Shown here piece after piece: positions 9,819 to 58,785 of a stretch of DNA of 64,000 bases (its first letter is position 1; each line of letters begins with the position of its first letter). The position numbers and the translations under genes were made by a program. A model generated the notes under the pieces. That model was not told the DNA's origin, made no database searches, and saw only the letters and a list, made by a program, of their open reading frames with translations. The DNA is from Agelas oroides. Lineage: Eukaryota; Porifera; Demospongiae; Agelasida; Agelasidae. The stretch lies in the NCBI GenBank assembly GCA_949130485.1, contig OX422185.1:9920118-9984117 (forward strand), in the 5' to 3' direction.

Positions 9819-10418
9819 ATGGGGTTATCACACCCATAGTCACAACTGCATGTGACCATCATGTAGGCTATTTGACCACTTGACAACATTGCAAATGAGA
9901 CCTTGACTGTACACAAATTAACTTCTTAACACCTTGATGGATTGAGCAGAAAAAGCTTTCATGGATGTTTGCATGGGGTGATCAAACTGTCCTACTCTTG
10001 TACAGTTCATGTTGTCGTGATGAATAGAAATGAGCTTTTTTCTGTGATGTGTGATACTTCAGCAGTGTGAATATAATGCCATCTTTTTCATGACCTATGC
10101 TGATTACAAGAAGCTTGGGAGGGCCGTAGAACCCACTATGGCCAGAACGACCATGGCTGTAGTGGTTTTTATTAGTATCATGGTTTTGCACTGCTGCTCA
10201 CAATAAGTACGCAAGACTAAATCAAAGTTTAAATTTAGTTCAAACCTTCAGAAACATGCTCGTAATAGCTAATAGTAGGAGTCGTAGGTTGGTAAATTTA
10301 CCAAAGAACATTTTCCCAGGCAATTCCAAAGTTGTCAGCCATGCTTTTCAGCGTCTGGCTGGTTTTAAGGTTTGAGAAGCCACCAGAAGCTGTCTTCCTG
10401 GGGAGGCATGCCCACAGA

Positions 10419-10756
10419 TAGTCTCGCGTGGCCACACCCCGTTCCGCAAGAGAAGGAAGGGGTCTGGTAACTTCTTTTACAGCAGTTTGTTGTCTCGCAC
10501 TGTGGAGTGCGGGACCAATCACAGCGCAGTATTCTGTCACATGAGTGCTGTTATCACAACTTCAATAGGAAATTACAAGGTGTAAATCAACTGTGAAACC
10601 ACAAGCAGCTGCTTCGTCAGTATTCTCGAGATAATTATGCGGCCTTAGCGCCCGTGCAATGCGAGTAAATGAAATTCCTGTGCAACAAGCGGCTGCAGCG
10701 AAAGTTACCGGACCCCTTCCCTCTCTTGCGGAACAGGGTGTGGCCACGCGAGACTA
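10419..10756. mobile_element. TAGTCTCG inverted-repeat MITE, 9 bp TSD
   Basis: A 338 bp element bounded by TAGTCTCGCGTGGCCACACC and its inverted copy ending GGTGTGGCCACGCGAGACTA. The inverted repeat continues inward for about 95 bp (CGTTCCGCAAGAGA, GGAAGGGGTC, GGTAACTT). It is flanked on both sides by the exact 9 bp direct repeat GCCCACAGA (10,410-10,418 and 10,757-10,765). Nothing in it codes for a transposase, so it is non-autonomous. A 9 bp duplication is typical of Mutator-like elements, but terminal sequence alone does not prove that. It is the longest full member of the hairpin family described in the findings. Confidence 0.9.
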
Positions 10757-10765
10757 GCCCACAGA

Positions 10766-11960
10766 GTGTTCATGCTAGCCCTTCACTGGCTTTTCCTTGG
10801 TTCTTGCTAGGGCATCATGAGAGACCTACTGCAGGAACAACGCACCCACTGTGGACTTGTTCCTACACAGCACGTCTGAAATGTGAAGTGATGAATAGCT
10901 ACTTGATTTAACATCTTGCCCTAGCTGAAGAATAAAGGAAATTGAAAAGCTAGCAGTAGCTAAGAATAGAACCCAGAGCTTCTATGGTGTCATTCCCTTC
11001 GTTGGTCAGCATTTTATGTAGCAAAAGGAATCCCTTGGACATGGACCACCCTAGTTAATTTGGGGGTTTGTACTTCCAGGACATAATAACATTTCACCCA
11101 GGGGCCCCTGGACTTAATGGACTAATTGTACAGCTAGACTACGAACAGGCAAAGACCATTTACCTAGAAGATGAACTTGCTGCACCAACTTGTCTTGCAG
11201 GAGTGCAGCTCACCATTGCAGCTGGGCACGAATTTTGTAGCACAAGTAGCCACACCCACGAAAGTATAAAGAACGCGTCCCATGCATCTGGTCTCGGAAT
11301 CAAACCTATGTTCTACAGGCGAGTTGCAGGCTGAAACTACTTCCTAAGATTTCTTGCTACATAACTTACAAACTTTGAACACCTTCAAGGCCTACCTCAT
11401 GCTTTTGCCTTCCTGGACTCATCCAAAAGTGATATGATATTTGCATTCAGAGTGAAGTCAAACTTGCAGGGAGAGACTAGCTAAGTACTGCTCTTTGCAT
11501 TTCAGCTGAAGTAACAAAAAGTCTTTGACTGTCAAATTTCTCTGTAGTCACTCTGTTTGATCTGGGATTGCTCTGCTGTTGTTTTTGGTTGCACATTAGA
11601 TCACACCCCAGCTGGCCCACGTGATCACCACTTCCAACTATTCTAGTTCGTTTTAGAGAAGGTTAGAACATCAAAGCTGACTGGTAGCTATAGGCCATGT
11701 GATTATGTATGGAATTGTCTGTTGCTTGAGGCCATTTGTGTAGATGCAGCATTCCTGTCTCAAATTAAAATTCCATTCCTTTCCATTTGAGTAAACCTTG
11801 CTCACCACAAGCCCATATGCTTGGTGTTTGTTCCCCACTTCCTGAAAACTTTCAGGAAAGTACAAAATCACCACAATCATATATGCAAGTTCAGCTGGCT
11901 GGTAATTCACAGCACTCCTCCTAAACACTAGTTATAAAACACAACACTCCTCGCTATAGC
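10766..11960. other. gene-free stretch
   Basis: No recognisable gene. The last 150 bp (from about 11,820) match the 3' flank shared by the minus-strand kelch genes (CTTTCAGGAAAGTACAAAAT, AGTTCAGCTGGCTGGTAAT), so the kelch duplication unit begins before the pseudogene itself. Confidence 0.5.
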
Positions 11961-11974
11961 TCAATGCTGCCAGT

Positions 11975-12835
11975 TCTCTCAGTTCACAGAACTGCAGGCA
12001 ACTTGTAGTAATTGGAGGCAATCGGGGGACAAGTGGCAGTGAGACTCCTACTATCAATGCATACAATGCCAACAAAGATTCATGGTACGAGATTGGCAAG
12101 CTGGCAAGTGGGCGCTCACATCTACTTGTTGCTCAACTGTCTGAAGATACAGTGGTGGTTGCAGGGGGGAAGGGTCGTGTTGGTCAAGTTCTAACTGAAA
12201 TCGTAACTGCATGGTGAGAGAGGCACATGTGGCATGTTCATTCAGTGGAGATTGGCTTGGTGTCACCTCAGTATCAATTCATCAAGGAAGCATCGGTAAA
12301 CCCAGCCACCCCAGCCACCTCCATTCATCACATAGAGCTCATCGCCACAAACTGCAGCAGAAGGAAATGGTGAGCCCTTTGGCAGTTCTGGAGCTTCTGA
12401 CCATTTGGAAAATTTTGTGTCCAAGATATCAACTCGACTCTCAACTCCACTTTCACCCACTCCTGCAATTACTATCAGTGAGTTTCCAATTTGGACAACA
12501 CCTGCTCTGGCCTTCTTCAAATTTACACCCAGTGCCGGATCATTGTTCCATGGCTGGAAACTTTTCAACCCACCATCTGTTGAATAAGCTGTACAGGTGG
12601 TTGGAGAATTCTTCATCAGCTATGCCATGCTCTCTTTTTCGACCACCCAGAGCAGTGAGCAGGCCATCACTGGCAGGCTCATGTTTTTTGTATGGTCATT
12701 TGCACAGTGGAAACCAGTCATCCTTTTCCACATTGTACATCCATAAGTCATATTGCATTTGGAGTGTTTTTCCCTCTTTTGATGGTAACTGTCTTCAGCT
12801 GCTGTCCTTCACAGTCATACTTACCAGTATGGTGG
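11975..12835 (-). pseudogene. kelch propeller pseudogene with internal inversion
   Basis: Most of this copy lies on the minus strand. From about 12,825 down to 12,235 it encodes pieces of blades 1-4, including VESRVDILDTKFSKWSEAPE and GDELYVMNGGGWGGWVY. The last third (blades 5-6: GGNRGTSGSETPTINAY, DSWYEIGKLASGRSHLL, SEDTVVVAGG) is present at about 11,992-12,213 but on the plus strand. Both junctions are clean. The 3' flank AGTTCACAGAAC runs straight into inverted coding sequence, which ends just before GAGAGAGGCACATGTGG. The short word AACTGCA sits at both breakpoints. Blade 1 also lacks the stretch that encodes the GKCYFMSEDKH region in its paralogues, and the frame is broken elsewhere. 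No functional product is expected. Confidence 0.92.
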
Positions 12836-13320
12836 ATGAATTATCTTATTATGGATTCTGTAATCCATTTTCAAGGCAAATTCAGGTATCCATTTCCCCC
12901 AAAAATGTACAGGTTTCTGCAGGCATCTATCTACTATGGGTACACATCACCAGCAGGCCATTAATTGGAACCTGAGTTGTGAACCCGATCCTGCAACAAG
13001 CAGGAATGATTTCTGAGCAGCTGTATGCAGTAGAATTAAACTGTCTGGTTTCACGGTCAGTTGCATTTGCAATCAAAACCCTGTATAGCTTGGGTGACTC
13101 TTGCAGCTGGGTTTTCCTTTCCCTTCCATCCACTTCTGGCCCAGTGACGTGCCAAATTCAGTATTCATGATGAACTTCATTATGCACAAGGCCGTGAATT
13201 GGGCAAGCCAAATCAAACTATTACCTCTGTATGTGCATTGATTTTGGCAAAATAGACATGTGGGGGGGGCAAGCTAGACAAGATTAAGCATGCTCTGCTA
13301 GAGGGGTCTGGGGGCATATA

Positions 13321-13441
13321 TAGCCTCGTTCCTAGGCCTTCCCCGGCTCCAGTTTTTGATTGCTTGCAGTAAGCAAAAACTGTTTTTGCATACTGCAAGC
13401 GATCAAAAACTGGAGCCGGGGAAGGCCTGGGAATGAGGCTA
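13321..13441. mobile_element. 121 bp hairpin element, 8 bp TSD
   Basis: An almost complete palindrome. The left half TAGCCTCGTTCCTAGGCCTT...GCAAAAAC is mirrored by GTTTTTGC...AAGGCCTGGGAATGAGGCTA. The flanks carry GGCATATA on both sides (13,313-13,320 and 13,442-13,449). It resembles the TAGTCTCG family in terminal sequence and size of duplication but is longer. There is no coding capacity. Confidence 0.85.
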
Positions 13442-13556
13442 GGCATATACGTAATCCTGGCTAAATGTGATTGGGCAAAAATAGCCAGCTTCTATGGCCC
13501 AGTGGTCCATTTATCCATTGCCCCCTACCAAAAAGTGTCCTTAACACGTTTCACCA

Positions 13557-13904
13557 CACTGCAAAAACTACTTGGTTAAAATGACCATGAGCGCAGGTGA
13601 CTGTTTCAGGATTGATTGAACAGGTGAGTCTACGACTAATTTAAAAGAAATCCAAAACACAATTAGCATCCACCAACCCCCTCACAATCCATCAAGCTTC
13701 AGAGACACTTGTCTGCTATACATATATGTTGGCTAGCAGACAGGTGTCTGTGCTTGGTTTTGAAGCTAGATGGAATTGTGAGGGGGTTGATGGATCATAA
13801 TTATGTTGAAATCCCTTTAATCATACTACCCACCTGTTCAACGGACCTTGAAGCTGTAGTAACCCTGCACTTGTAGTCATTTTAACCAAGTATTTTTTGC
13901 AGTG
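13557..13904. mobile_element. MITE with CACTGCAAAAA termini
   Basis: A 348 bp foldback sequence. The left end CACTGCAAAAACTACTTGGT and the right end, reverse-complemented CACTGCAAAAAATACTTGGT, share TTAAAATGAC, TTGAACAGGTG, and an inner block (CCCCCTCACAATCCATC, GACACTTGTCTGC) that almost meets at the centre (TATACATATATG). No transposase and no obvious target duplication. Same family as the element at 9,591. Confidence 0.85.
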
Positions 13905-15080
13905 ACATATGCATAACAAGCCCAACATGATTTGCCTACTTCACACACACAGTCAGTGAGTAGCTAAGTTTGCAAAAATCGGAGACTGTCAAGAGTTTTT
14001 GCCATGTAAGTTTGTTGGACGTAAACTCATGTAGTAAGTGAACCATCCCAGACTGGTTTGTCATCTGATGGAAACGAGCTCCCTAATTGGTAGCTCCCTA
14101 TTTTTGGTAGCTAAGTCCCAAAGGAAATTTGTGACTTGCTCTTGTTAGCACGGACAAGCAATATGTAGTCTCACAAGCCAGACTCATGCACTTTCCTAAT
14201 GAGTCAGGCTTGGGACTCTGATACACCAGTTAACCATCAGAGGGTCAACTGTCCATATTACCAAGAACTAGCCCAGTCACACTACTATTCTCTGAAAATG
14301 ACTTGTCCCAGTAGTTGCAATTTGCTCACATGATATCAAGTATTGCATGCTGGGACATGCCCAAGCAAGTGTATTACGAATGTGCAAGAGGTGAAAAGAT
14401 CAGCACATACACATATTAGATCTGCACATTGATGAAGTGTCTGTCAAATCAGTTGGAAATCACCTAAAAGTGGAAATCTAGCTCGCATGCAATCACTTTC
14501 ATGTTGATGCACTGCACCAGATTCTAAAATGGACTGTCAATTGCTTTGCGTCAATGTACAACCTTTCTTCTCGCGTCACATGCTTTCTGTCTTTGTGATT
14601 GCCTGACCAGTCTCTCTCATGCGTAATTGTCACTATCTACTCATGCATCAGGTCTGAAACATGCACAGTTTGTGCAATATCATTACAAAATGTACAAATA
14701 CACATATATGCCTCTACTGATAGCTAATTGTTGTTTCCACTACTGTGACTTGGGAGTAGGAACTGCCAACTTCCCACATTATGAACATAAAATTTGGCAG
14801 CTCATCCATGCAGGATCACAAGTGGGTAAAAGGAAACCCAACTGCATGCAGAGGTTAGTTCTAATTGTACACAGGGAGTGTACACAGAACTCAACTATCA
14901 GTCCTGAGTTGGTCCTGAAGCCTTTTCTAGTGTTTTGGGAAAGAGAGGGTCTGAAGCATCTAGCCATAACATCCTTGGAAGCCATTTATGCTAACTGACA
15001 CTGAAACCAAGGGCTAGCTTGCAGCAATCCGTCTTTGGGAGGGGGGGGGGCTTTGTTCCTATTGACATATCAGGCCTATA
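13905..15080. other. gene-free stretch with one small hairpin
   Basis: No credible gene. At about 14,166-14,219, AGTCTCACAAGCCAGACTCAT is followed by a reverse-complement partner ATGAGTCAGGCTTGGGACT. This is a decayed relative of the TAGTCTCG hairpins, without a visible target duplication. Confidence 0.5.
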
Positions 15081-15087
15081 GATAAGC

Positions 15088-15094
15088 TATATAA
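15088..15094 (+). promoter_or_regulatory. possible TATA box of kelch gene 1
   Basis: TATATAA lies 41 bp upstream of the ATG of the plus-strand kelch gene. The other copies have a different upstream sequence with no equivalent motif. If used, transcription would start only a few bases before the coding region. Position and motif only; not otherwise supported. Confidence 0.3.
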
Positions 15095-15134
15095 TTCCTG
15101 TTCATTTACAAGCCTTTCAGTCTACAAACTCATC

Positions 15135-16031
15135 ATGGTTGAAGAACAGCAGTTGAGGGCAGTTACCATCAAAAGAGGAAAGAATGCTCCAATTGCAATG
15201 TGCAGAGGAGCAGCTGCAGCTGGTGATGGCAAGTGCTACTTCATGTCCGAAGACAAGCATGAATTATGGATGTATGATGTAGTGAAGAACGACTGGTTTT
15301 CACTGCGGCAATGCCCATACAAAAATACATCCTTGGCTGTCATCAATAACCTGATAACTGCTGTCGGTGGTCAAAAAGGAGAGTATGGCACTCCTGACTA
15401 TGAATTCTCCAACCACCTCTACAGCTTCTCCAATAGACGATGGGCTGAAAAGTTTCCACCCTTGAATGGTGTGAATTCGAAGAAGAGCAGAGCAGCTGTT
15501 GTCCAAAGTGAAAGCTCACTGGTAGTAATCGCAGGAGTGGGTGAAAGTGGATTTGAGAGTCGAGTTGATATCTTGGACACAAAATCTTCCAAATGGTCTG
15601 AAGCTCCAGAGCTGCCAAAGGGCTCACCATTTCCTTCTGCTGCAGTCTGTGGTGATGGGCTCTATGTGATGAATGGGGGTGGCTGGGGAGGCTGGGTCTT
15701 CCAGTGCCTCCTGGATGAGTTGATAGGTGACACCAAGTCTACTGCCAATGTGTGGTCAAAGAAAGCAGATGCACCCTTTCAAAATGCCACATGTGCCTCC
15801 CTCTATGGGCAACTTGTTGCAGTTGGTGGCAATCGTGGGACAAGTGGTTCTGAGACTCCTACTATCAATGCATACGATGCTAACAAAGATTCGTGGTATG
15901 AGATTGGCAAGTTGGCAAGTGGGCGCTCACAGCCACTTGTTGCTCAGCTGTCCGAAGACACCCTCATAGTTGTAGGGGGGATAGGTCAGACTGGTGAAAT
16001 TGTAACTGAAATTGTAACTGGTATTCTCTGA
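15135..16031 (+). CDS. kelch-repeat propeller protein, MVEEQ type (copy 1)
   Basis: A single uninterrupted frame of 298 codons with ATG start. The protein consists of six kelch blades and nothing else, with no BTB, BACK, F-box, signal peptide or membrane segment. Blade signatures can be read in order: LWMYDVVKNDWFSL (res. about 40-55), AVGGQKG followed by LYSFSNRRWAEKF, VIAGVGESG with VDILDTKSSKWSEAPE, YVMNGGGWGGW with NVWSKKADAP, AVGGNRG with INAYDANKDSWYEIGKL, and a final VVGGIGQTG strand. Kelch propellers are generally protein-binding scaffolds; the partner here is unknown and cytosolic location is inferred from the lack of targeting sequence. The start is chosen because all paralogues share M(A/V)E(G/E)Q. 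Compared with them, the 9 bp CACAGTAAT just before the ATG is missing. It is convergent with the copy at 17.8 kb. It differs from the 47.3 kb copy at six residues, so that duplication or gene conversion is recent. Confidence 0.93.
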   Translation: MVEEQQLRAVTIKRGKNAPIAMCRGAAAAGDGKCYFMSEDKHELWMYDVVKNDWFSLRQCPYKNTSLAVINNLITAVGGQKGEYGTPDYEFSNHLYSFSNRRWAEKFPPLNGVNSKKSRAAVVQSESSLVVIAGVGESGFESRVDILDTKSSKWSEAPELPKGSPFPSAAVCGDGLYVMNGGGWGGWVFQCLLDELIGDTKSTANVWSKKADAPFQNATCASLYGQLVAVGGNRGTSGSETPTINAYDANKDSWYEIGKLASGRSQPLVAQLSEDTLIVVGGIGQTGEIVTEIVTGIL

Positions 16032-17792: not shown

Positions 17793-18704
17793 TCACAGAA
17801 CACCGGTTACGATTTCAGTTAGAAGTTCACCAACGCGACCCTTCCCCCCTACAACCACCACTGTATCCTCAGACAGTTGAGCAACAAGAAGATGTGAGCG
17901 CCCACTTGCCAACTTGCCGATCTCGTACCATGAATCTTTGTTGGCATCGTATGCATTGATAGTAGGAATCTCACTGCCACTCGTCCCACGATTGCCTCCA
18001 ATTACTACAAGTTGCCCGCAGAGAGAGGCACATGTGGCATCGTCATAAGGTGCATCTGCTTTCTTTGACCACACACTGGATATTGGCTTGGTGTCACCTA
18101 TCAATTCATCCAGGAAGCATTGGTAGACCCATTTACCCCAGCCACCTCCATTCATCACATAGAGCTCATCTCCACAAACTGCAGCAGAAGGAAATTGTGT
18201 GCCGCCTGGCAGTTCTGGAGCTTCAGACCACTCAGAGGATTTGGTGTCCAAGACATCTATCCGCTGTTCAAAACCACCTTCACCCCTTCCTGCAATTACT
18301 AACATTGAGCTTCCACTTTGAACAACAGCTGCTTTGCCCTTCTTTAAATTCACACCCAGCGCAGGATCATGCTTCATGGCTGGGAACTTTTCAGTCCACC
18401 GTCTGTTGGATAAGCTGTAAAGGTGGTTGGTGAATTCATACTCGGCAGTGCTGGGCTCTCCTTTTTGACCACCCACTGAAGTAAGCAGGCCATTGATAAC
18501 TGTCAGGCTTGTGTTTTTGTATGGGCATTGGCGCAGTGGAAACCAGTCATCCTTTTCCACATCATACATCCACAGGTCGTGTTTGTCTTCGGACATGAAG
18601 TAGCACTTGCCATCACCAGCTGCAGCTGCTCCTCTGTGCATTGCAGTTGGAGTATTCTTCCCTCTTTTGATGGTCACTGCTTTCAGCTGCTGTCCTTCAG
18701 CCAT
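17793..18704 (-). CDS. kelch-repeat propeller protein, MAEGQ type (copy 2)
   Basis: 303 codons on the minus strand from the conserved MAEGQQLKAV start at 18,704. An in-frame ATG 13 codons upstream (18,743) exists but is not shared by the 54 kb paralogue, so the inner start is preferred. Six kelch blades are present. Visible elements include LWMYDVEKDDWFPLRQCPY, SVGGQKGEP, LYSLSNRRWTEKFPAM, VIAGRGEGG with IDVLDTKSSEWSEAPELP, MNGGGWGKWVY, VIGGNRGTSG with INAYDANKDSWYEIG and VVVGGKGR. Compared with the MVEEQ type it has a five-residue longer loop between blades 2 and 3 (KHDPALGVNLKKG). The function is presumably a protein-interaction scaffold; no catalytic domain is attached. Its terminus faces that of copy 1. 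Confidence 0.93.
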   Translation of the reverse strand: MAEGQQLKAVTIKRGKNTPTAMHRGAAAAGDGKCYFMSEDKHDLWMYDVEKDDWFPLRQCPYKNTSLTVINGLLTSVGGQKGEPSTAEYEFTNHLYSLSNRRWTEKFPAMKHDPALGVNLKKGKAAVVQSGSSMLVIAGRGEGGFEQRIDVLDTKSSEWSEAPELPGGTQFPSAAVCGDELYVMNGGGWGKWVYQCFLDELIGDTKPISSVWSKKADAPYDDATCASLCGQLVVIGGNRGTSGSEIPTINAYDANKDSWYEIGKLASGRSHLLVAQLSEDTVVVVGGKGRVGELLTEIVTGVL

Positions 18705-19019
18705 AATTACTGTGGATGCATTTGTAGACTGTATATTCTGCATAACTTATATACTGTGTCACTATCTTGGTATGGATTCTGTTATCCATTTTCTGCCAAA
18801 TTCATGTATCCATTTCCCCCCAAGGTGTCTGCAGGCAATACACTTTAGCATCAAAGTATTCAGCAGCAGGCGACTAATTATCTTTTGGAACCTGAACTGT
18901 GAACCCCTTCCTGCTTTCCCAAGCAACAAGCACGAATGATGTCAGGGCGGCTGTAAGTATAATTAAGTCATCTGGTTTTCAGGGTCAACAAAGTCCTGTA
19001 TAGTTTGGCTGGCTTTTGC

Positions 19020-19402
19020 AGGTCTGGGGGCATGCGCCCCAGGAAATTTTTTGATTTCAGACCTTCACCTTCTGAGACCTTTTCTGGTGCCGTTTTGGGG
19101 TGAAATAGCAAGAGTTGGACGACCTACTGCCAAATCCAGTCATTGTGTTTGAAGCCTTGCAGAATTTATTAAAAGGCGTGGCTCCGCTTCGCTCTGCAGA
19201 GGCTGCAAAGCAGCCATGAGGCGCAGGGAAAAAGGAAAACACATGCGTTATTGCTACTGTGAAGCTTCAGTGTGGCTTCTGTGTATCTCCAGTGTGGGCT
19301 GTAGTGTACGAGGTTACGTTTGCGCAGACTTACTAACTATAGCTACGCAAAGGCGCCCTTCAAAAGGGGGTTCCATGGAACCCCCTCTAGATCCACCACT
19401 GC
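19020..19402. mobile_element. hAT-like MITE fragment
   Basis: The right end, AACCCCCTCTAGATCCACCA followed by CTG, matches the CAGTGG(C/T)GGATC termini of the hAT-like MITEs in inverted sense. The internal GGTCTGGGGGCATG block followed by AAATTTTTT is the same motif found in the other hAT-like copies. No matching left terminus is found, so this copy is probably truncated. It holds no coding region. Confidence 0.5.
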
Positions 19403-23424: not shown

Positions 23425-23476
23425 TAGTTTGGTTCCCAGACCCTTCCTGTACAGGAAGGGTCTGGGAACCAAACTA
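23425..23476. mobile_element. 52 bp perfect hairpin insertion
   Basis: A perfect palindrome of two 26 bp halves, starting TAGTTTGGTTCCCAGACCCT and ending with its inverse. It is flanked by TCAGGCGCA (23,416-23,424) and TCAGGTGCA (23,477-23,485), a 9 bp direct repeat with one mismatch. The inner CCCAGACCC is shared with the TAGTCTCG hairpins, so I group it with them. It sits inside the gag-like part of the DIRS fossil. Confidence 0.88.
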
Positions 23477-23837: not shown

Positions 23838-23876
23838 TAGTCTCGTGCCCAGCCGGAACGGCTGGTCACGAGACTA
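23838..23876. mobile_element. 39 bp TAGTCTCG hairpin, 9 bp TSD
   Basis: TAGTCTCGTGCCCAGCCG, a GAA loop, then CGGCTGGTCACGAGACTA. Flanks are AGTCTCTGC (23,829-23,837) and ACTCTCTGC (23,877-23,885), a 9 bp repeat with one mismatch. The inverse end of the host element (around 26,245) lacks the hairpin, which gives a within-element empty-site comparison. Confidence 0.92.
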
Positions 23877-38609: not shown

Positions 38610-39521
38610 TCACAGAACACCGGTTACGATTTCAGTTAGAAGTCCACCAACGCGACCGTTCCCCCCTGCAACCACCACTGTATCCTCAGACAGTTGAGCA
38701 ACAAGTACATGTGAGCGCCCACTTGCCAGCTTGCCGATCTCGTACCATGAATCTTTGTCAGCATCGTATGCATTGATAGTAGGAATCTCAGAAGCAATTG
38801 TCCCACGATTGCCACCAATTGCAACAAGTTGCCCACAGAGAGAGGCACATGTGGCATGTTCATAGGGTGCGTCTGCTTTCTTTGACCACACGCTAGAGAC
38901 GGGCTTGGTGTCACCTATCAACTCATCCAGGAAGCATTGGTAGACCCATTTACCCCAGCCACCTCCATTCATTACGTAGAGCTCATCTCCACAAACTGCA
39001 GCAGAAGGAAATTGTGTGCCCTCTGGCAGTTCTGGAGCTTCAGACCACTCAGAGGATTTGGTGTCCAAGACATCTATCCGCTGTTCAAAACCACCTTCAC
39101 CCCTTCCTGCAATTACTAACATTGAGCTTCCACTTTGAACAACAGCTGCTTTCCCCTTCTTTAAATTCACACCCAGCGCAGGATCATGCTTCATGGCTGG
39201 GAACTTTTCAGTCCACCGTCTGTTGGATAAGCTGTAAAGGTGGTTGGTGAATTCATACTCGGCAGTGCTGGGCTCTCCTTTTTGACCACCCACTGAAGTA
39301 AGCAGGCCATTGATAACTGTCAGGCTTGTGTTTTTGTATGGGCATTGGCGCAGTGGAAACCAGTCATCCTTCTCCACATCGTACATCCACAGATCGTGTT
39401 TGTCTTCGGACATGAAGTAGCACTTGCCATCACCGGCTGCAGCTGCTCCTCTGTGCATTTCATTTGGAGTGTTCTTCCCTCTTTTGATGGTAACTGCTTT
39501 CAGCTTCTGTCCTTCAGCCAT
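38610..39521 (-). CDS. kelch-repeat propeller protein, MAEGQ type (copy 3)
   Basis: 303 codons from the conserved MAEGQKLKAV start at 39,521; an upstream in-frame ATG (39,554) would add MCVSTNSSTVI, which is the translated conserved leader and is not favoured. Six intact kelch blades, close to copy 2. Distinguishing positions include PEGTQFPS in blade 4, APYEHATC before blade 5, GGNRGTIASEIP in the blade 5 loop and VVVAGGNGRVGG in blade 6. Differences concentrate in surface loops between strands, while the blade core residues (GG doublets, conserved Y and W) are unchanged, as expected for a gene still under constraint. There are no extra domains. The 5' side shares TACAAATTCATCCACAGTAAT with the copies at 47.3 and 54.4 kb. 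Confidence 0.93.
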   Translation of the reverse strand: MAEGQKLKAVTIKRGKNTPNEMHRGAAAAGDGKCYFMSEDKHDLWMYDVEKDDWFPLRQCPYKNTSLTVINGLLTSVGGQKGEPSTAEYEFTNHLYSLSNRRWTEKFPAMKHDPALGVNLKKGKAAVVQSGSSMLVIAGRGEGGFEQRIDVLDTKSSEWSEAPELPEGTQFPSAAVCGDELYVMNGGGWGKWVYQCFLDELIGDTKPVSSVWSKKADAPYEHATCASLCGQLVAIGGNRGTIASEIPTINAYDADKDSWYEIGKLASGRSHVLVAQLSEDTVVVAGGNGRVGGLLTEIVTGVL

Positions 39522-39769
39522 TATTACTGTGGATGAATTTGTAGAGACACACACTCACATATTCTGTTATTGTATTCAGAGGGAAATTTAGAAAGTTCTA
39601 CAGAAAAAGGTTTGGTCAGTCATAGATACAGTGTGCATTCCCAAGGCCTCCTTACTGCTAGCACTGGGTTAATAGTATATTATATATTTTACAGGAGTGA
39701 TTAACGTATTCCATAGAATTCGAACGCCAGAAATTAATTTTGTTCGAATAATTAGACTCATTACGGTAA

Positions 39770-45321: not shown

Positions 45322-45575
45322 CACAAGACAGACTCTTTCCGCTCCACAGCGGAGCGGTACTGAAAGCGATCGGTTCTGTGGAACCGAAAGCGTCTGGCTT
45401 GCGCGACTAGCTTTCCCAGGCCTCTCTCTCTCCCGAGGCGAGAGCGTCTCGAAAATCAGACCTGTTCTGTTACGCAGCGCCGATCCCTTCAGAATCCAAT
45501 ATCCGATAAGCGATACTGGAAGCGATCAGCGCTGCTGAATGGAAGGGGTCTGGCTTGCGAGACTACTCAGACTAG
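45322..45575. mobile_element. two adjacent foldback hairpins of the TAGTCTCG kind
   Basis: First hairpin (about 45,322-45,410): CAGACTCTTTCCGCTCCACA pairs imperfectly with TGTGGAACCGAAAGCGTCTG, ending GCGCGACTAG. Second (about 45,448-45,568): CAGACCTGTTCTGTTACGCA with GCGCCGAT pairs with ATCAGCGCTGCTGAATGGAA and GGTCTGG, ending CTTGCGAGACTA. Both right ends read as TAGTCTCGCAAGCCAGAC in inverse, linking them to the small hairpins. Both are also present in copies B and C of this module, so they predate the duplication. Confidence 0.7.
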
Positions 45576-46907: not shown

Positions 46908-46979
46908 GGCCGCTAGCTCAAGGTGATAAATTAGGCTGAAAATGATTGCTATTTGTGGCAGGGAAGGAGTGTAACTGGC

Positions 46980-46985: not shown

Positions 46986-47326
46986 AATGCATTGCTGGAT
47001 GAACTCATGCAGTAGGATTGAACTCTCGGTTATTTATATGCTGTTTATTAATGCTTTATTTGACTTTGAGTATGATAAACAATGTAATCCTAAACCATGG
47101 TAAAAGTAGGAGGTGGAACTGAGGTGACCCATCTTAATCTCCAATTTCTCCTGGTGTGGAGATCAGTAGCTTGTATTAACCATGCATGCATCCATGCACT
47201 ACAACAAAGTATGTAGTACCCATTCAACTGACAAGGTGGGTCTCGTTCATGCTTACTCCACACATCATAGAGAAAACTTTCGAAATCAGTAATGCGCTAG
47301 CATAAATCATTACAGCATGTCTCAGT

Positions 47327-48223
47327 TCAGAGAATACCAGTTACAATTTCACTTACAGTTTCACCAGTCTGACCTATCCCCCCTACAACTAAGAGGGTGT
47401 CTTCGGATAGTTGAGCAACAAGTGGCTGTGAGCGCCCACTTGCCAACTTGCCAATCTCATACCACGAATCTTTGTTAGCATCGTATGCATTGATAGTAGG
47501 AGTCTCAGAATCACTTGTCCCACGATTGCCACCAACTGCAACAAGTTGCCCATAGAGAGAGGCACATGTGGCATTTTGAAAGGGTGCATCTGCTTTCTTT
47601 GACCACACATTGGCAGTAGACTTGGTGTCACCTATCAACTCATCCAGGAGGCACTGGAAGACCCAGCCACCCCAGCCGCCTCCATTCATCACATAGAGCT
47701 CATCACCACAAACTGCAGCAGAAGGAAATGGTGAGCCCTTTGGCAGCTCTGGAGCTTCTGACCATTTGGAAGATTTTGTGTCCAAGATATCAACTCGACT
47801 CTCAAATCCACTTTTACCCACTCCTGCGATTACTACCAGTGAGCTTTCACTTTGGACAACAGCTGCTCTGCTCTTCTTTGAATTCACACCATTCAAAGGT
47901 GGAAACTTTTCAGCCCATCGTCTATTGGAGAAGCTGTAGAGGTGGTTGGAGAATTCGTAGTCAGGAGTGCCATATTCTCCTTTTTGACCACCGACAGCAG
48001 TTATCAGGTTATTGATGACAGCCAAGGATGTATTTTTGTATGGGCATTGGCGCAGTGAAAACCAGTCGTTCTTCACTACATCATACATCCATAATTCATG
48101 CTTGTCTTCGGACATGAAGTAGCACTTGCCATCACCAGCTGCAGCTGCTCCTCTGCACATTGCAATTGGAGCATTCTTTCCTCTTTTGATGGTAACTGCC
48201 CTCAACTGCTGTTCTTCAACCAT
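47327..48223 (-). CDS. kelch-repeat propeller protein, MVEEQ type (copy 4)
   Basis: 298 codons from MVEEQQLRAV at 48,223. An in-frame ATG exists up to 22 codons upstream, but that sequence is the conserved leader and the other copies do not keep it open. Six kelch blades as in copy 1, from which it differs at six residues (GVGKSG for GVGESG, GDE for GDG, GTSDSE for GTSGSE, LLVVGG for LIVVGG, ET for EI, VSEI for VTEI). It lies in opposite orientation to copy 1 and has the same 3' flank, here ending in a clear AATAAA. The near identity, despite 31 kb separation and inversion, points to recent duplication or gene conversion. Likely a protein-binding scaffold; partner unknown. Confidence 0.93.
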   Translation of the reverse strand: MVEEQQLRAVTIKRGKNAPIAMCRGAAAAGDGKCYFMSEDKHELWMYDVVKNDWFSLRQCPYKNTSLAVINNLITAVGGQKGEYGTPDYEFSNHLYSFSNRRWAEKFPPLNGVNSKKSRAAVVQSESSLVVIAGVGKSGFESRVDILDTKSSKWSEAPELPKGSPFPSAAVCGDELYVMNGGGWGGWVFQCLLDELIGDTKSTANVWSKKADAPFQNATCASLYGQLVAVGGNRGTSDSETPTINAYDANKDSWYEIGKLASGRSQPLVAQLSEDTLLVVGGIGQTGETVSEIVTGIL

Positions 48224-49440
48224 GATTACTGTGGATGAATTTGTAGAGACACACAATGTCATCGATTCTGTCATTGTATTCAGAGGCAAATTTAGAAAGT
48301 TCTACAGAAAAAAGGTTTGCTTAGTCATAAATACAGTGTGCATTCCCAAGGCCTCCTTACTGTTACAGACTTGCTAAATTATAGTAACAGTACGTAATTG
48401 CAGATCAGTGCATGATGCTGCATATGCATTAAACTTTTCAGTAAGCAGCCTCCAAAGTGCCACACTCACCAGAGTGTGGTACATGTGTGGAAATGCTCTT
48501 GTAGTGTGTTAGAGCAGTAACAAAACTCCTGAGTTTGGACAGTATAGTGCTGCAGTATTTGTATACCAAAGGCTAGCACCTAAGGTTTTACATTGGGAGT
48601 CAAGTTAGTCTCAGAATGTTAACTCCTTGAAAGTCAACACTCAAATTAACTACAAATTTCTACAGTAACTCTAAATGACTCTGAATTTTCCCCAAAATTG
48701 AGGCCAAACATGATGTGTCTAGAATCAGGGCTGGTGTAGAACCTGGACTGGAGTATTAAACTGCATGGGTTAATAGTTTTTATAGCGGTAAACACACAAT
48801 GCAAGTGAATAGAAGTCCTGTATTTTCTTTTCAATTGGGATATTGTTACCACTTACAAAAACTTGCAAAACACCTGAGTCAAGTAATAATAGTCCAGACC
48901 TTTAGTTCAGCTCATAGTCCAGAGGCCAGGTTTTACACTTGTCTGCAAGGCGTTCTTTATCAATGACATGCTGGGAGTTGACATCCCAGGAAGATACGGC
49001 TTAGTCAATGAGCATAGACTCATCATCAATGCATGTTGACATTCATAAGGTCGTCGGAAGTGGGGTGACTGGGGCGCCCCGGGCTGCCCCACTTTTCTAG
49101 CTGTTTTGTAGAACTTCGAACTTTAAACACATGTCATGCAGTTCTGTCGAGTTAGTGCAATGACTGATCAGCTGCCTAAGCTTGCAATAGGTGACAAGTC
49201 TTTACTTGGGAAGACATGAGCCTCAGTGGTTCGACAGCTGGTCGTGGCTTCACTACAAGGAAGACAAAGATCGTTCTGTTTTACTTGACTCTTACCTGTG
49301 TAACTGCTTACCAGCATTCTGTTACTTGCTTGGAGTGAACTGGGTTCTCTAACTTGAAGGATGAGGTTGTGAAATTTACTTTCCATGCACACAAAAGCTG
49401 TGCATGTGTAGTGAGTTTGCGCAGTGTGAAATGCCGGCAG
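48224..49440. repeat. kelch 5' flank and linker module
   Basis: 48,224-48,370 is the leader shared by three kelch genes (GTAGAGACACACA ... AAATTTAGAAAGTTCTACAG ... CCCAAGGCCTCCTTACTG). 48,760-49,040 matches the module at 39,770. 49,045-49,440 holds GGGGCGCCCCGGGCTGCCCC followed by a segment repeated at 52,990 and 59,605. The minus-strand frame over that segment (VREPSSLQASN...SQVKQNDLCLP) is partly open in all three copies but has no ATG in common and no known motif. 48,370-48,760 shows nothing recognisable. Confidence 0.75.
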
Positions 49441-51440: not shown

Positions 51441-51479
51441 TAATGACAAATGTTAATTCGTTTTTTTTGTTTTTTTTTT

Positions 51480-52605: not shown

Positions 52606-53755
52606 AACATGATGTGTCTAGAATCAGGGCTGGTGTAAAACCTGGACTGGATTATTAAACTGCATGGGTTAATGATTTTTATGCGGTAAACACACAAGTG
52701 AATAGAAGTCCATCTGATTGTATTTTCTTTTCAATTGGGATATTGTTACCACTTACAAAAACTTGCAAACCACCTGAGTCAAGTAATAATAGTCCAGACC
52801 TTTTAGTTCAGCTCATAGTCCAGAGGCCAGGTTTTATACCTGTCTGCAGAGCGTTGTTTATCAATGACATGCTGGGAGTTGACATCCCAGGAAGATACGG
52901 CTTAGTCAATGAGCAGAGACTCGTCATCAAAGCATCCACCATTGAAAGGCAACACCTTCCACTGCCTGCATGTTAACATTCACAAGGCTATCGGAAGTGG
53001 GGTGACTGGGGCGCCCCGGGCTGCCCCACTTTTCTAGCTGTTTTGTAGAACTTCGAACTTTAAACACATGTCATGCAGTTCTGTCGAGTTAGTGCAATGA
53101 CTGATCAGCTGCCTAAGCCTGCAATAGGCGACAAGTCGTTTTTTCCAGCGTGAACTTGGAAAGACATGAGCCTCAGTGGTTTGACAGGTGGTCGTGGCTT
53201 CACTACGAGGAAGACAAAGATCGTTCTGTTTTACCTGACTCTTACCTGTGTAACCGCTTACCAGCATTCTGTTACTTGGAGTGAACTGGGTTCTCTATCT
53301 TGAAGGATGCCGTTGTGAAATTTACTTTTCATGCAAGCAAAAGCTGTGCATGTGTAGCGAGTTTGCACAATGTGAAATGCCGGCAGATTGCTTTCCTGTG
53401 CGTAACACTTGTGAATGGTGTATACATGCATGTATATAATTCCCACCTGTTACTTGTTACTAGGGTGAAGTGGAGAATATATACATGTATACATGCTGAG
53501 TTGAAGGTCTTGGAACCCAGAGACTGAGACATACAGGAATAACATACTGTGATAGACGTTTGGCTCTTAACCACAAAATGAGATCAATTTGGTAGTGGAT
53601 TGCCTTCCTTGCATTGCAGTAGTGATAAATGTAAGGCAAGTACAAAGTTTGGTTCTCATAGGATATGAATAACTTTAGTGTAGAGCTTAGCAACATCCAA
53701 GTACACCTGTCAAGTCTCTCCATTTACTGTAGCTGTACAGTGACATTTCATGGAG
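52606..53755. repeat. linker module and partial long module (copy 3)
   Basis: 52,606-52,980 matches the kelch 5' linker, 52,990-53,390 the GGGGCGCCCCGGG segment, and 53,390-53,755 only the first quarter of the long module (ending GACATTTCATGGAGACTAGA). It joins abruptly to the kelch 3' flank at about 53,760. That junction marks a duplication breakpoint. Confidence 0.8.
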
Positions 53756-54360
53756 ACTAGACCAAAGAATGAAGCATGCTTGGGAGTGGGGAAGTTGGGG
53801 GGCATTTCCCCCACAACAAATCCAAGTCTATTCTGAGGTCATCTCTTTGTGGCTTCTCATTCTCGGTGGCCGGGAAAAGATTCTGATTCTCATGCTATAG
53901 CAAATGAGTTAGTGGGTCAGATGTCTGGAAGTGGCACGCAGTAGCAACTTTGAACCTATTAAATTTGTGTGGCACCATGGAATGTGTGCATATTTGGGTT
54001 GCAAGTTAGCAAACTTAATCGTTATGTATTGACTCAGCTATACTGTAAATGCTGTTAAATATTTTGTTGGCCTGTATTGACTTCTCACTTTCTTGTGTTT
54101 ACTTGACTACTACACTGACAAGTATTCTTAGTCTATGTAGTATGTACTTCTCTAGAGTGATGAAGGATACACCTGGGCACCTAAAGATTCTGAATATAAT
54201 CCACTTCTTCAGAGAAAACTTTCAGGAAAATACAAAATAAGTTCCGCTGGCTATAGTAATACACAGTTGGTGCACCAAAATTATACCTAGCTACCTATAC
54301 AAAACACTACTAGTTCAACACTGTACTCTTCGCTCTGGCTCAATGCAACTAGTTCTCAGT
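53756..54360. repeat. 3' flank of kelch copy 5
   Basis: Matches 38,020-38,600 closely (GGGGGGCATTTCCCCCACAA, TCATCTCTTTGTGGCTTCTC, GCAAGTTAGCAAACTTAA). No gene. Confidence 0.8.
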
Positions 54361-55266
54361 TCACAGAACACCGGTTACGATTTCAGTTAGAAGTCCACCA
54401 TTGCGACCCTTCCCCCCTACAACTACCACTGAATCCTCAGACAGTTGAGCAACAAGTAGATGTGAGCGCCCACTTGCCAACTTGCCGATCTCATACCACG
54501 AATCTTTGTCAGCATCGTATGCATTGATAGTAGGAGTCTCAGAACCGCTTGTCCCACGATGGCCACCAATTGCAACAAGTTGCCCACAGAGAGAGGCACA
54601 TGCGGTATGTTCATAGGGTGCGTCTGCTTTCTTTGACCACACACTAGAGATCGGCTTGGTGTCACCTATCAGTTCATCCAGGAAGCATTGGTAGACCCAT
54701 TTACCCCAGCCATCTATCACATAGAGCTCATCACCACAAACTGCAGCAGAAGGAAGTTGTGAGCCCTTTGGCAGTTCTGGAGCTTCTGACCACTCAGAGG
54801 ATTTGGTGTCCAAGACGTCTATCCGCTGTTCAAAACCACCATCACCCCTTCCTGCAATTACTAACACTGAGCTTCCACTTTGAACAACAGCTGCATTGCC
54901 CTTCTTCAAATTCACACCCAGCGCAGGATCATGCTTCATGGCTGGGAACTTTTCAGCCCACCGTCTGTTGGATAAGCTGTAAAGGTGGTTGGTGAATTCA
55001 TACGCGGCAGTGCTGGGCTCTCCTTTTTGACCACCCACTGAAGTAAGCAGGCCATTGATAACTGTCAGGCCTGTGTTTTTGTATGGGCATTGGCGCAGTG
55101 GAAACCAGTCATCCTTTTCCACATCGTACATCCACAGATCGTGTTTGTCTTCAGACATGAAGTAGCACTTGCCATCACCAGCTGCAGCTGCTCCTCTGTG
55201 CATTTCATTTGGAGTGTTCTTCCCTCTTTTGATGGTAACTGCTTTCAGCTTCTGTCCTTCAGCCAT
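54361..55266 (-). CDS. kelch-repeat propeller protein, MAEGQ type (copy 5)
   Basis: 301 codons starting at the conserved MAEGQKLKAV (55,266); the upstream leader is not open here, which supports this start for the whole family. Blades 1-3, 5 and 6 look normal (DLWMYDVEKDDWFPL, SVGGQKGEP, VIAGRGDGG, AIGGHRGTSG, VVVGGKGRNGG). Blade 4 is altered: where the paralogues have YVMNGGGWGKW this copy has YVIDGWGKW, two residues shorter and without the glycine doublet that defines a kelch strand. The rest of the frame is intact, so the fold may tolerate it, or this copy may be at an early stage of decay. Other unique residues are AAYEFTNHL and YEHTACASL. Confidence 0.9.
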   Translation of the reverse strand: MAEGQKLKAVTIKRGKNTPNEMHRGAAAAGDGKCYFMSEDKHDLWMYDVEKDDWFPLRQCPYKNTGLTVINGLLTSVGGQKGEPSTAAYEFTNHLYSLSNRRWAEKFPAMKHDPALGVNLKKGNAAVVQSGSSVLVIAGRGDGGFEQRIDVLDTKSSEWSEAPELPKGSQLPSAAVCGDELYVIDGWGKWVYQCFLDELIGDTKPISSVWSKKADAPYEHTACASLCGQLVAIGGHRGTSGSETPTINAYDADKDSWYEIGKLASGRSHLLVAQLSEDSVVVVGGKGRNGGLLTEIVTGVL

Positions 55267-55490
55267 TATTACTGTGGATGAATTTGTAGAGACACACAGT
55301 CATAGATTCTGTTATTGTATTCAGAGGCAAATTTAGAAAGTTCTACAGAAAAGGATTTGCTTAGTCATAGATACAGTGTGCATTCCCAAGGCCTCCTTAC
55401 TGCTAGCAGTATTTTACTGATTAGTAGCATATTTTTTTACAGCAGTAAATACATAAGTGAATATAAGACCGCTATAAAACACTAGGAACA
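55267..55490. repeat. shared kelch leader
   Basis: GTAGAGACACACAGTCATAG ... TTTAGAAAGTTCTACAGAAA ... CCCAAGGCCTCCTTACTGCT, the same non-coding leader as at 39,540 and 48,240. Confidence 0.8.
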
Positions 55491-55885
55491 CTAAAGTACG
55501 GATTCGCCAATGTGTGCATGAAGGTGTTATAGTTACAAGCATCAGTGTTGAAGCATTTAGCTACTGCTTGTTTTGAATGTCAACATGCAGGCAGTGGAAG
55601 GTATTTATTGTTACCTTCCAATGATGGATACTTTGATGATGAAGAGTCTCTGCTCATTGAAAAGACTAAGCTATATCTTCCCGGGATGTCAACTCCCACC
55701 CAGCATGTCATTGATAAAAAACGCCTTGCAGATCGCTGACTTTGGCTGCAATCCTGAGGATAGGTGTAAAACCTGGACTCTGGACTAATGGTCTAGACTG
55801 TTTGCACTTGACTCACATGTTCATGGTTTGCAATTTTTAAGTGGTAACAATATCTCAAGTAAAAAGAAAATACAATCAGATCCTT
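55490..55885 (-). repeat. inverted copy of the kelch 5' module
   Basis: Reverse complement of 39,780-40,018 plus 40,586-40,690: words TTTTGAATGTCAACATGCAG, CTTCCCGGGATGTCAACTCC and GGTGTAAAACCTGGACTCTG read in opposite sense. Because it lacks the hAT-like MITE it supplies the empty site for 40,019-40,585. Confidence 0.9.
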
Positions 55886-57640
55886 GTTTTAAAATCTGAT
55901 TGAAGTTACCAGAATTCTGGAGAGAGCATAGACTGTAATCTATAGCTACCAACCATTTCCTGTGCGTAAATACTTGTGAGTGGTGTATACATGTATATAT
56001 TACCCACCTGTTGCTATAGAAACAAGGGTGAAGTAGAGAATATATACATGTATATATGCTGATCGGAAGGACCTGGGAACCCAGAGACTGAGACATGCAG
56101 GAATAACATACAATGAGGAAAGTTTGGCTAATCACAAATTGAGATCAATTTGTAGTGGACTGACTTCCTTGAGTGTATGCTGTGTCACATTTACATCTAA
56201 AACTATAGTTCATGACTACTTCGACCTGTAATGTAACATTGTAATTTCTAACTTGTCATTTTTCTGTAATTGTAATCATTATTTGTAAGTAACCTTGGTA
56301 ATTGTAATGGGTATTAATTGATGATTCAGGCTCAAGTAATTGTAATCAATAAAACCATGCCAGAATTCAATTACTACAACCCTGAAGTACACCTGTCCAT
56401 GTAGAACTTAACATGCAAGTACACCTGTCAAGTCTCTCCATGTACATTAGCTACTGTAGCTGTACAGTGACATTTCATGGAGACTAGACTGTTTGTTTTC
56501 CATAGGATTCTGAAAAATAAAATTCGTTGTATTGCAATAACACATCATGGTCAGGATAGGAGAGTGTTAAGCCCATATAGTTTCTTACCACCAGATCCTG
56601 TAAAGTATATGTGCTTAACAAAGTGCCTCATCATCCTGACTCACTATTATATTTTTATACACTGTATAAACTACATTGTTAATATACTACAGAAGATATA
56701 CAATTGCTATTGTCATATGTTGCACTCTGTGTGTCATGTGTCATGCGCTTATCTGATCACATTGATATCAGTAGACCTATAGCAACTCAAGTGACAATCA
56801 GATAGCATTAATAGATGGTAGGCACTGTGCATTCACACAATACTAGTTTATTGTGTAATTGAAATACGTGTAAACTATACCCCAGATAGCTATACATACA
56901 CATATACTGCACTGTTGCAATGTTACAAAGTTATTGTAATAACAAGTCCTTGGGCATCCTGTTACCATGCTACATAGCTATAACTTGAGTGTTTGTCACC
57001 AAAAATATTAGGTTAGAACATAAACAAGGTGAACTAAGCTTCAACAGTACAGTTTATTGTGTAATTGAAATACGTATAAACTATACCCCAGATAGCTACA
57101 TACACATACTGCACTGTTGCAATGTTACAACTTATTGCCAGGCTGGCAGTAGGGTGCATACTACTGGAATCTCCTTGAGATTCTGTCCCTGGCGAGGGCA
57201 CAGAAACTGCCCATAGGGACAGAAGCAAGGTTGCTACATAGCATGCAATAAAACCTTGTACTACGCGTAGCAGTAGCTATGTATTCACCACTATACTTAC
57301 ATCAAGTAATTGCATGTCTTGGTAATTTTCAAATTTGCATGGACAGTCACAATGCAACACAAATTTGTACAACTGGTCAAGGTACTCAAGTATTTACTGT
57401 CTATACAGAAAGAATTGTTTTGTTTATGTAGTCAAAAAATGGTATGCCAGTGATGGGTAGTGGATAAGTAATGATTTAATTGGAATAGTTGAACCAGTAA
57501 GGGCCATCACAGTACATGTACATGGCAGATTTTTAAGTGACATACTTATACAACTGTGTGATATGATAAATAAATGAATACAGCTACCATGACATGTAGT
57601 TTATTAGTGTCAGTTCACTGAGAGAGAAAAAGAGGAGGGG
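55886..57640. repeat. long module, copy 4
   Basis: Good match to copy 1 through about 57,430, with an insertion of unrelated AT-rich sequence at about 56,180-56,390 (TAATTGTAATCA repeats). The region around 57,046-57,130 repeats sequence already present at 56,850-56,930. 57,430-57,640 shows nothing recognisable. Confidence 0.82.
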
Positions 57641-57736
57641 GCACCGGTACCCAGGTAATCAGGTAATTATTGCACGCGCACGATGATCGTTTTCGGTTTC
57701 CGCCCACCATTGTATCACGCTGTACTTTCTTCTACA

Positions 57737-57895
57737 ATGAAGCAAATGGCTGCAGCAGCTCCTTCATTAGTTTGTCGAAGGTTACGTAGTCTTATTGCAG
57801 GTGACAATGGCCTGAAAAGTTCCTAAGCCGTCGATCGCCGTACGTTCTTGGTCACCCTCACCAAAAGACCATGGAATACGGACGACTTTAACTAG
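57737..57895 (+). pseudogene. small ORF, copy C, with an internal stop
   Basis: Same frame as copies A and B: MKQMAAAAPSLVCRRLRSLI, AGDNGLKSS, then TAA at codon 30 where the others have Tyr, and afterwards AVDRRTFLVTLTKRPWNTDDFN to the shared stop position. One substitution accounts for the loss. Confidence 0.6.
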
Positions 57896-57946
57896 TAACT
57901 ATCTTCAATTTCTTGTCCATAATAGTCGAGAGAGTGACGTGAAGCA

Positions 57947-57982
57947 GAGATAATATATAACGAAGGTTATATATTATCTATG
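57947..57982. mobile_element. 36 bp hairpin, exact 9 bp TSD
   Basis: GAGATAATATATAAC, loop GAAG, GTTATATATTATCTATG, between two exact copies of CGTGAAGCA (57,938-57,946 and 57,983-57,991). Copies A (44,820) and B (51,796) have a single GACGTGAAGCAA at this point, so the insertion and its duplication are directly visible. The termini are AT-rich and unlike TAGTCTCG. Confidence 0.93.
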
Positions 57983-58283
57983 CGTGAAGCAACCTTGACT
58001 AACGAACGCTGGTGAGCGTTTGCACCGCGAAGCGGCAACATTTGACGACGCAATAAGTTTTTAAGTTTTTCAACCGGCCATCCGCACTGCGTGTGCTTTA
58101 TAGCTTATTTTACGTAGACCAACCAACAACTGTTGAACTTGTTTACAGAAAGAATGATGTGGCTCTCACACTGTGCGAGCGAAACGTCCGACCACTGGTG
58201 TCCGTCTTTTTCTGTGTATCATGGTTTGTTACATATTAAAGTAGTATGCGCCTTTGAATACCAAGTTTGACTGTAAGTGATTG

Positions 58284-58318
58284 TAGTCTCGGAACCAGAC
58301 CCTCGGGTTCCGAGACTA
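58284..58318. mobile_element. 35 bp TAGTCTCG hairpin, exact 9 bp TSD
   Basis: TAGTCTCGGAACC, AGACCCTCG loop region, GGTTCCGAGACTA. Exact AAGTGATTG on both sides (58,275-58,283 and 58,319-58,327). Copies A (45,026) and B (52,066) read AAGTGATTGCA once, without the hairpin. Confidence 0.96.
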
Positions 58319-58750
58319 AAGTGATTGCAAGACTGTGGATACCATAGACACTGTCTAGACTATGATTATACTAGGCTTACCCACCGCCTTATTACAGGCC
58401 TTCTTGTGCTTTTTGGCTTTGAAAAAGAACGTAGACAATCTATTGATTGCTGTGAGAATTGCAGAACTTACGCCTGTCACGGAGGAAACGTCGAGGAAGG
58501 ATTGTCACCACGCGTGCTCGGTGCTGGGTACAGCCAGTACTCAACTATAGAGGCCAAGCAAAGTGGATTCATTGTCACCGCCCACTTCACCTTTGTCCCA
58601 CAAGCCAGACTCTTTCCGCTCTGGATCACAGTGGAGCGATACTGAAAGCAATCGGTTCTGTGGAACCGAAAGCGTCTGACTTGCGAGACTAGCTTTACTT
58701 AGACTCAGTCCCATGCAGGCCTCTCTCTCTCTCCGGAGTCGAGAGCGTGT

Positions 58751-58785
58751 TAGTCTCGCGTAGCCAGACTGGCTACGCGAGACTA
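58751..58785. mobile_element. 35 bp TAGTCTCG hairpin
   Basis: TAGTCTCGCGTAGCCA, GAC, TGGCTACGCGAGACTA. Copies A and B have GAGCGTCT(C/T)GAAAATCAGA continuous at this place. Flanks AGAGCGTGT and AGACCCTGT agree at 7 of 9 positions, so the duplication is less certain; about 20 bp of extra sequence follows (GACCCTGTTGATTAGTCTAG). Confidence 0.85.

What the first reader, a model, noticed from the sequence alone, without database searches (positions are those of the whole stretch)
10410..58785. A family of tiny TAGTCTCG palindromic insertions with 9 bp target duplications
Seen directly: hairpins at 10,419 (338 bp), 23,838 (39 bp), 58,284 (35 bp) and 58,751 (35 bp) all begin TAGTCTCG and end CGAGACTA. 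A 52 bp perfect palindrome at 23,425 and longer ones at 13,321, 40,337 and 45,322-45,575 share CCAGACCC/GGTTCCC-type inner words. Flanking direct repeats are 9 bp and exact at 10,419 and 58,284, and one mismatch short at 23,425 and 23,838. At 58,284 two paralogous modules show the empty site. Elements of 35 bp that consist of almost nothing but a stem are smaller than ordinary MITEs. They leave little room for a transposase-binding site other than the stem itself. Inference: one transposase, Mutator-like by size of duplication, mobilises anything folding into a TAGTCTCG stem, or the hairpins are copied in by a different route.
Basis: partly seen in the sequence, partly recalled or inferred. 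Interest (0 to 1): 0.9.

Follow-up and report, generated by a model that had tools for sequence, protein, structure and literature searches.

The report
Tiny hairpin insertions with 9-bp duplications
This genome is strewn with DNA hairpins only 20 to 80 letters long that carry the scar of transposon insertion, and many look like mobile elements of about 300 letters that lost their middle where they landed, leaving two ends that nearly touch.

Summary
TAGTCTCG...CGAGACTA pairs of 21-51 bp occur 703 times in the 259-Mb assembly (reversed-pattern control 4), those of 52-81 bp 825 times (control 1). Flanks repeat at exactly 9 bp: of 70 independent tiny sites read, 31 match 9 of 9 and 46 match at least 7, against 0.5% in mismatched pairings and 0 of 84 for the same pattern in viral contigs. 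Clean empty sites exist. So these are insertions with a 9-bp target duplication, down to 29 bp.

They are not best read as hairpins mobilised for their fold. A 338-bp relative moves as a unit (10 of 10 copies read have their own 9-bp repeat). Tiny copies show almost one interior per site (76 interiors at 70 sites), often join the two ends of known long elements, and change length in place (52/44/31, 51/55, 24/21 bp). Best explanation: MITEs that lost their middle in place; some then spread as passengers in other repeats. A near-identical 35-mer at 7 sites keeps mobility of a 35-bp unit open. No autonomous partner was found.

The parts
10410..10418 (+). left copy of 9-bp target duplication GCCCACAGA
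10419..10756 (+). full-length 338-bp MITE, TIRs about 55 bp; one of at least 40 near-full-length copies in the genome
10757..10765 (+). right copy of 9-bp target duplication
13321..13441 (+). 121-bp relative with TAGCCTCG..CGAGGCTA-type ends, exact 8-bp flank GGCATATA (9-bp register fails)
23425..23476 (+). 52-bp perfect palindrome with divergent ends TAGTTTGG/CCAAACTA, flanks 8 of 9 (TCAGGCGCA/TCAGGTGCA)
23838..23876 (+). 39-bp tiny element, flanks 8 of 9 (AGTCTCTGC/ACTCTCTGC)
58275..58283 (+). left copy of 9-bp target duplication AAGTGATTG
58284..58318 (+). 35-bp tiny element, 13-bp stem, exact 9-bp flanks; only place in the genome with this 35-mer
58319..58327 (+). right copy of 9-bp target duplication
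58751..58785 (+). 35-bp tiny element, flanks 7 of 9 (AGAGCGTGT/AGACCCTGT); insertion status uncertain

Best explanation
These are members of a diverse set of miniature inverted-repeat (foldback-like) DNA transposons with termini TAG[T/C]CTCG...CGAG[A/G]CTA that insert with a 9-bp target duplication. Full-length copies (mainly 262-397 bp in the sample) are moved by a transposase supplied from elsewhere in the genome. The tiny copies (about 20-80 bp) are mostly not mobilised as such: each is a longer copy that lost its middle at or after insertion, keeping roughly 10-42 bp of each end and the original target duplication. Shown: duplications, empty sites, almost one interior per site, joins that equal left-end prefix plus right-end suffix of known long elements in many cases, length changes in place. 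Inferred: that the loss follows transposase cutting with incomplete gap repair or end joining, or hairpin slippage in replication, and that the transposase is Mutator-like.
For: 9-bp duplications: 32 exact of 292 end pairs against 1, 2, 1 and 0 for 7, 8, 10 and 11 bp; 46 of 70 tiny sites at 7 of 9 or better. Empty sites with a single 9-bp copy; 9 of 11 places with an unfilled host repeat show both flanks overlapping by exactly 9 bp. Long units move: 10 of 10 copies of the 338-bp element read have separate sites, 9 with exact duplications and 1 with 8 of 9. Tiny copies: 76 interiors at 70 sites, one exact interior at two sites. Joins: 17 of 35 strings of one subfamily are exact end-plus-end joins; 5 of 6 products in other subfamilies fit one known long copy and the sixth fits two related copies. 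In-place length change at one insertion: 52, 44 and 31 bp, 51 and 55 bp, 24 and 21 bp.
Against: No site was seen holding a full-length state in one copy and a tiny state in another. 18 of 35 strings are not exact joins of the library used. A 35-mer with at most 2 mismatches sits at 7 sites and a 48-mer at 4. Overlap at the joins is above chance in one subfamily (11 of 17 with at least 3 bp, 18.5% simulated) but only 0-3 bp in others, so the repair route is open. 24 of 70 tiny sites have no recognisable duplication.
Confidence: 0.7

Rival explanations
1. Tiny elements are mobilised as such: the transposase needs only the terminal 8-20 bp, so a 29-50 bp unit made of two ends can be cut out and inserted.
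For: Exact 9-bp duplications around elements down to 29 bp; the 35-mer GGCCAGAGTCTGGCC and its close variants at 7 independent sites, 6 of them with flanks of 7 of 9 or better; one exact 35-mer at two sites with different duplications.
Against: Almost one interior per site; the identical multicopy tiny elements whose flanks were read (the 24-mer and the 51-mer) turned out to share flanks, so they are passengers; the five clean 35-mers of the group show two alternative joins, which argues for at least two origins. Pairing two ends on 35 bp of DNA is sterically hard (established knowledge of DNA stiffness, not tested).
Confidence: 0.18
2. Tiny elements are excision footprints: the transposase removed most of the element and left part of each TIR.
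For: For the mosquito MULE Muta1, part of the TIR (up to 13 bp) was occasionally left after excision in yeast (PMC5225508, passage seen). It predicts the kept duplications, private joins and short overlaps seen here.
Against: It is a special case of loss in place, and kept ends of 23-42 bp are longer than the Muta1 remnants. Further length change inside host repeats needs no excision.
Confidence: 0.3
3. The hairpins are ordinary fixed parts of larger repeats, with no insertion of their own.
For: A 24-mer, a 51-mer and a 52-mer lie at fixed places in multicopy repeats.
Against: Reversed-pattern controls of 4 against 703 and 1 against 825; 60 independent exact 9-bp duplications; empty host copies overlapping by exactly 9 bp; 70 flank-independent sites among 83 copies read.
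Confidence: 0.03

Closest known systems
Tm1 Mutator/Foldback elements of root-knot nematodes, Phantom-type (PMC3169594; abstract and passages seen)
   Same: Composite foldback-like TIRs, most commonly 9-bp target duplications without target consensus, MITE-like non-coding members
   Different: Different terminal motifs; Tm1 has a known transposase; the passages seen describe MITE-like members under 0.5 kb but no 20-80 bp class
Muta1 MULE of Aedes aegypti (PMC5225508; passages seen)
   Same: 8- or 9-bp target duplications without apparent preference; excision occasionally leaves up to 13 bp of TIR
   Different: Autonomous element with assayed transposase; no link to TAGTCTCG ends
Rehavkus and Phantom groups of MULEs (PMC6446971; passages and table rows seen)
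   Same: Target duplications of 9 bp (Rehavkus) and 8-10 bp (Phantom) in invertebrates
   Different: Defined by their transposases, which were not found here next to these ends
Internally deleted transposons made by abortive gap repair (P-element type; recalled, not from a call)
   Same: Interior lost with short overlaps at the join, ends and target duplication kept
   Different: Here the loss goes almost to the bare ends, in over a thousand candidate copies, within elements that were already non-coding

Membership tests
MITE (non-autonomous DNA transposon) | short, non-coding, terminal inverted repeats | tested here: met
   long units 262-397 bp; no frame of 90 aa or more in the 2174-bp unit L097
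MITE (non-autonomous DNA transposon) | target duplication of constant length | tested here: met
   9 bp only
MITE (non-autonomous DNA transposon) | multicopy family with defined ends at unrelated sites | tested here: met
   338-bp family: 39 of 40 scored copies span 1-338; 10 of 10 read at different sites
MITE (non-autonomous DNA transposon) | for the tiny copies: movement as that unit | tested here: inconclusive
   almost one interior per site, but a 35-mer group at 7 sites
Mutator-like elements (MULE) | 8-11 bp target duplication | tested here: met
   9 bp; range from PMC6446971
Mutator-like elements (MULE) | MULE transposase flanked by these TIRs | tested here: inconclusive
   119 MULE matches in the genome; three loci read (L075, L076, L105), none with TAGTCTCG ends; the rest not read
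Foldback (FB) elements | long, internally repetitive inverted repeats making up much of the element | tested here: inconclusive
   nested CCAGAC/GTCTGG plan in TIRs, but 12 of 60 elements have stems of 13 bp or less
Merlin (IS1595-type) | IS1595-type DDE transposase flanked by these TIRs | not tested

The most novel reading that the evidence does not exclude
A 35-bp DNA segment made of two back-to-back 17-bp transposon ends is itself a mobile unit: the GGCCAGAGTCTGGCC 35-mer group at 7 sites with mostly separate 9-bp duplications would be among the smallest mobile DNA transposons, and would show that the transposase can pair two ends on DNA far shorter than a persistence length.
Probability: 0.18. 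Interest if true: 0.85.

Novelty: new variant of a known kind. Interest (0 to 1): 0.5.

Why it matters
It shows a MITE group in which tiny remnants of 20-80 bp are at least as common as full-length units in the stretches read (13 against 10), and gives a readable series of stages by which a transposon shrinks to its bare ends while keeping its insertion scar. It supplies 1,528 strict candidate places (passengers included) at which collapse in place can be tested against mobility of minimal elements in population data, and it shows tiny remnants being spread further as passengers in other repeats.

Tried and rejected
Rejected: chance (0 of 200 shuffles; reversed-pattern controls). A host-independent property of the motif (84 matches scored in the 80 viral-contig stretches handed back of 85, none at 7 of 9 flanks). 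Pure parts of larger repeats (true only for some). The fold as the recognised feature: my first measure, an unbroken outer arm of 6-11 bp in 40 of 60 elements, overstated this because one mismatch ends the run; allowing mismatches, 12 of 60 have stems of 13 bp or less.

Tried without result: autonomous partner at MULE loci L075, L076, L105; the 2174-bp unit L097 has exact 9-bp flanks but no frame of 90 aa or more; host lineage from a kelch-like ORF gave 54 protein matches with no organism shown; I recall similar words from sponge genomes, which no call tested. Literature listings: the motif itself (45 papers, 15 listed, unrelated by title), MITE collapse (3 papers), smallest or shortest MITE (12 papers, none on such elements by title), sponge and MITE, foldback and coral, Phantom and Porifera.

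Rows set aside: in the length list, the array pairs at L025:686 beyond 54 bp and at L032:3257, 3 of 38 typed strings (another family), while at least two near-duplicates of the 51-mer and the places that one search did not list were not typed. leave out L001-L005 as duplicates of other loci.
Full report
Observation. The four TAGTCTCG hairpins and the 52-bp palindrome are in the window as described. Six strict end pairs of 16-450 bp occur (two of them join wrong partners), none in 200 dinucleotide shuffles. Two flank claims are exact (10419, 58284), two are 8 of 9 (23425, 23838), one is only 7 of 9 (58751). 40337 and 45322-45575 do not qualify.

Genome-wide. The window lies in a 259-Mb assembly of 141 contigs, a eukaryote that I could not name. 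TAGTCTCGN{5,35}CGAGACTA occurs 703 times against 4 for the reversed pattern; the 52-81 bp range holds 825 against 1. At the fixed length of 35 bp there are 20 places and no control match. The counts include passengers in multicopy repeats, such as the 24-mer.

Target duplication. In the loci read by then, 32 of 292 end pairs up to 450 bp have exact 9-bp flank repeats, against 1, 2, 1 and 0 for 7, 8, 10 and 11 bp. Of 65 tiny copies, 22 match 9 of 9, 10 match 8 and 8 match 7; mismatched pairings give 0.02%, 0.19% and 0.31%. After merging copies with shared flanks, 83 tiny copies make 70 sites: 31 at 9 of 9, 7 at 8, 8 at 7; the other 24 lie at 6 or below, without a recognisable duplication. The same pattern in viral contigs gives 0 of 84 at 7 or more. 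Sixty independent exact duplications belong to elements of 29 to 397 bp (36 of them up to 58 bp), with no target consensus.

Empty sites. L050 (35 bp) against L034 and L028, L035 (35 bp) against L029, and L055 (36 bp) against L030 show the site with a single 9-bp copy. A 51-mer sits in a multicopy repeat: of the 40 scored candidates out of 627, 29 carry it and 11 match only beyond it; 9 of those 11 show both flanks, overlapping by exactly 9 bp.

Long relatives. The 338-bp element: 40 of 367 candidates were scored, 39 span its whole length and one spans 1-331. Of 10 copies read, all sit at different sites, 9 with exact duplications and one with 8 of 9. Other units of 262-397 bp with exact duplications exist. 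In the twenty 10-kb loci and the window, leaving out the seed copies and the array pairs at L025 and L032, there are 13 elements of 35-85 bp and 10 of 156-397 bp with flanks of 7 of 9 or better. The TIRs of several subfamilies share a nested plan: TAGTCTCG, then a CCAGAC-type word, then an inverted GTCTGG about 30 bp further in.

Stem. Of the 60 elements with exact duplications, 12 have stems of 13 bp or less even with mismatches allowed, among them units of 294, 309 and 322 bp. A long stem is common (48 of 60) but not required.

Origin of tiny copies. In the GGCC subfamily (54 places, not all listed) the tiny interior often equals the interior of one parental TIR joined to the outer end of the other at the shared word (AG)nAGTCTGG, giving a 55, 53, 51, 49-bp series. 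Of 35 strings analysed, 17 are exact prefix plus suffix joins and 18 are not; among the 17, 11 overlap by at least 3 bp, against 18.5% of simulated random joins. In other subfamilies, 5 of 6 tested products are one left end plus one right end of a single known long copy with 0-3 bp overlap, and the sixth needs two related copies; the breakpoints all differ. Overlaps therefore do not single out one repair route.

Change in place. One insertion inside a high-copy repeat is seen at 52 bp (L030), 44 bp (L023) and 31 bp (L070), with a fourth copy (L008) of 49 bp that lacks its last bases. In a search with the 44-bp copy, all 39 other scored copies (40 of 1,496 candidates scored) span 6-14 bp more than it, so the longer state appears to be the common one, though flank indels may add to this. 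Another insertion is seen at 51 and 55 bp, another at 24 and 21 bp.

Against my reading. No site was seen with both a full-length and a tiny state. A 35-mer with up to 2 mismatches occurs at 7 independent sites and a 48-mer at 4; one exact 35-mer is at two sites with different duplications. Two alternative joins among the five clean 35-mers argue for recurrence, but mobility of a 35-bp unit is not excluded.

Transposase. The genome holds MULE (119 matches) and IS1595-type (23 matches) transposases. Three MULE loci were read. L075 encodes a MULE domain and, downstream, an OTU protease domain; L076 has inverted repeats GGGAGACAATTTATTCACACAAG; L105 has a 1008-aa frame. None has TAGTCTCG ends. 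Mutator membership is therefore plausible by duplication length only.

Known work. Tm1 (PMC3169594, abstract and passages) is the closest described kind: Mutator/Foldback with mostly 9-bp duplications and MITE-like members. Muta1 (PMC5225508, passages) shows that MULE excision can leave up to 13 bp of TIR. PMC6446971 (passages) gives duplication lengths of MULE clades. Listings for smallest MITEs and for MITE collapse showed no description of a 21-80 bp class; the library lacks most subscription papers, so that is weak evidence of novelty.

Noticed in passing
L032:3257-4140 and L025:686-860: Tandem arrays of a 58-bp unit that hold a tiny TAGCCTCG-type element (L032) or begin at one (L025): tiny elements captured in satellite-like arrays.
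   Followed up: partly
L075 (G000:C2:11974500-11980500): MULE frame with ALS2CR8 and MULE domains, with an OTU cysteine protease domain encoded downstream; other near-equal MULE matches in the genome suggest a multicopy family.
   Followed up: partly
L097:80-2253: 2174-bp non-coding unit with the GGCC-type TIRs and exact 9-bp flanks, holding other inverted repeats inside.
   Followed up: no
window 15066-16031, 17793-18746, 38610-39554, 47327-48301, 54361-55299: Five long open frames for similar kelch-repeat-like proteins of 312-324 aa, a local gene cluster on both strands.
   Followed up: no
L106-L185: In viral contigs the pattern mostly hits near-identical 31-mers such as TAGTCTCGCTGGTAAAATACCTACGAGACTA, a recurring sequence unrelated to these insertions.
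   Followed up: no
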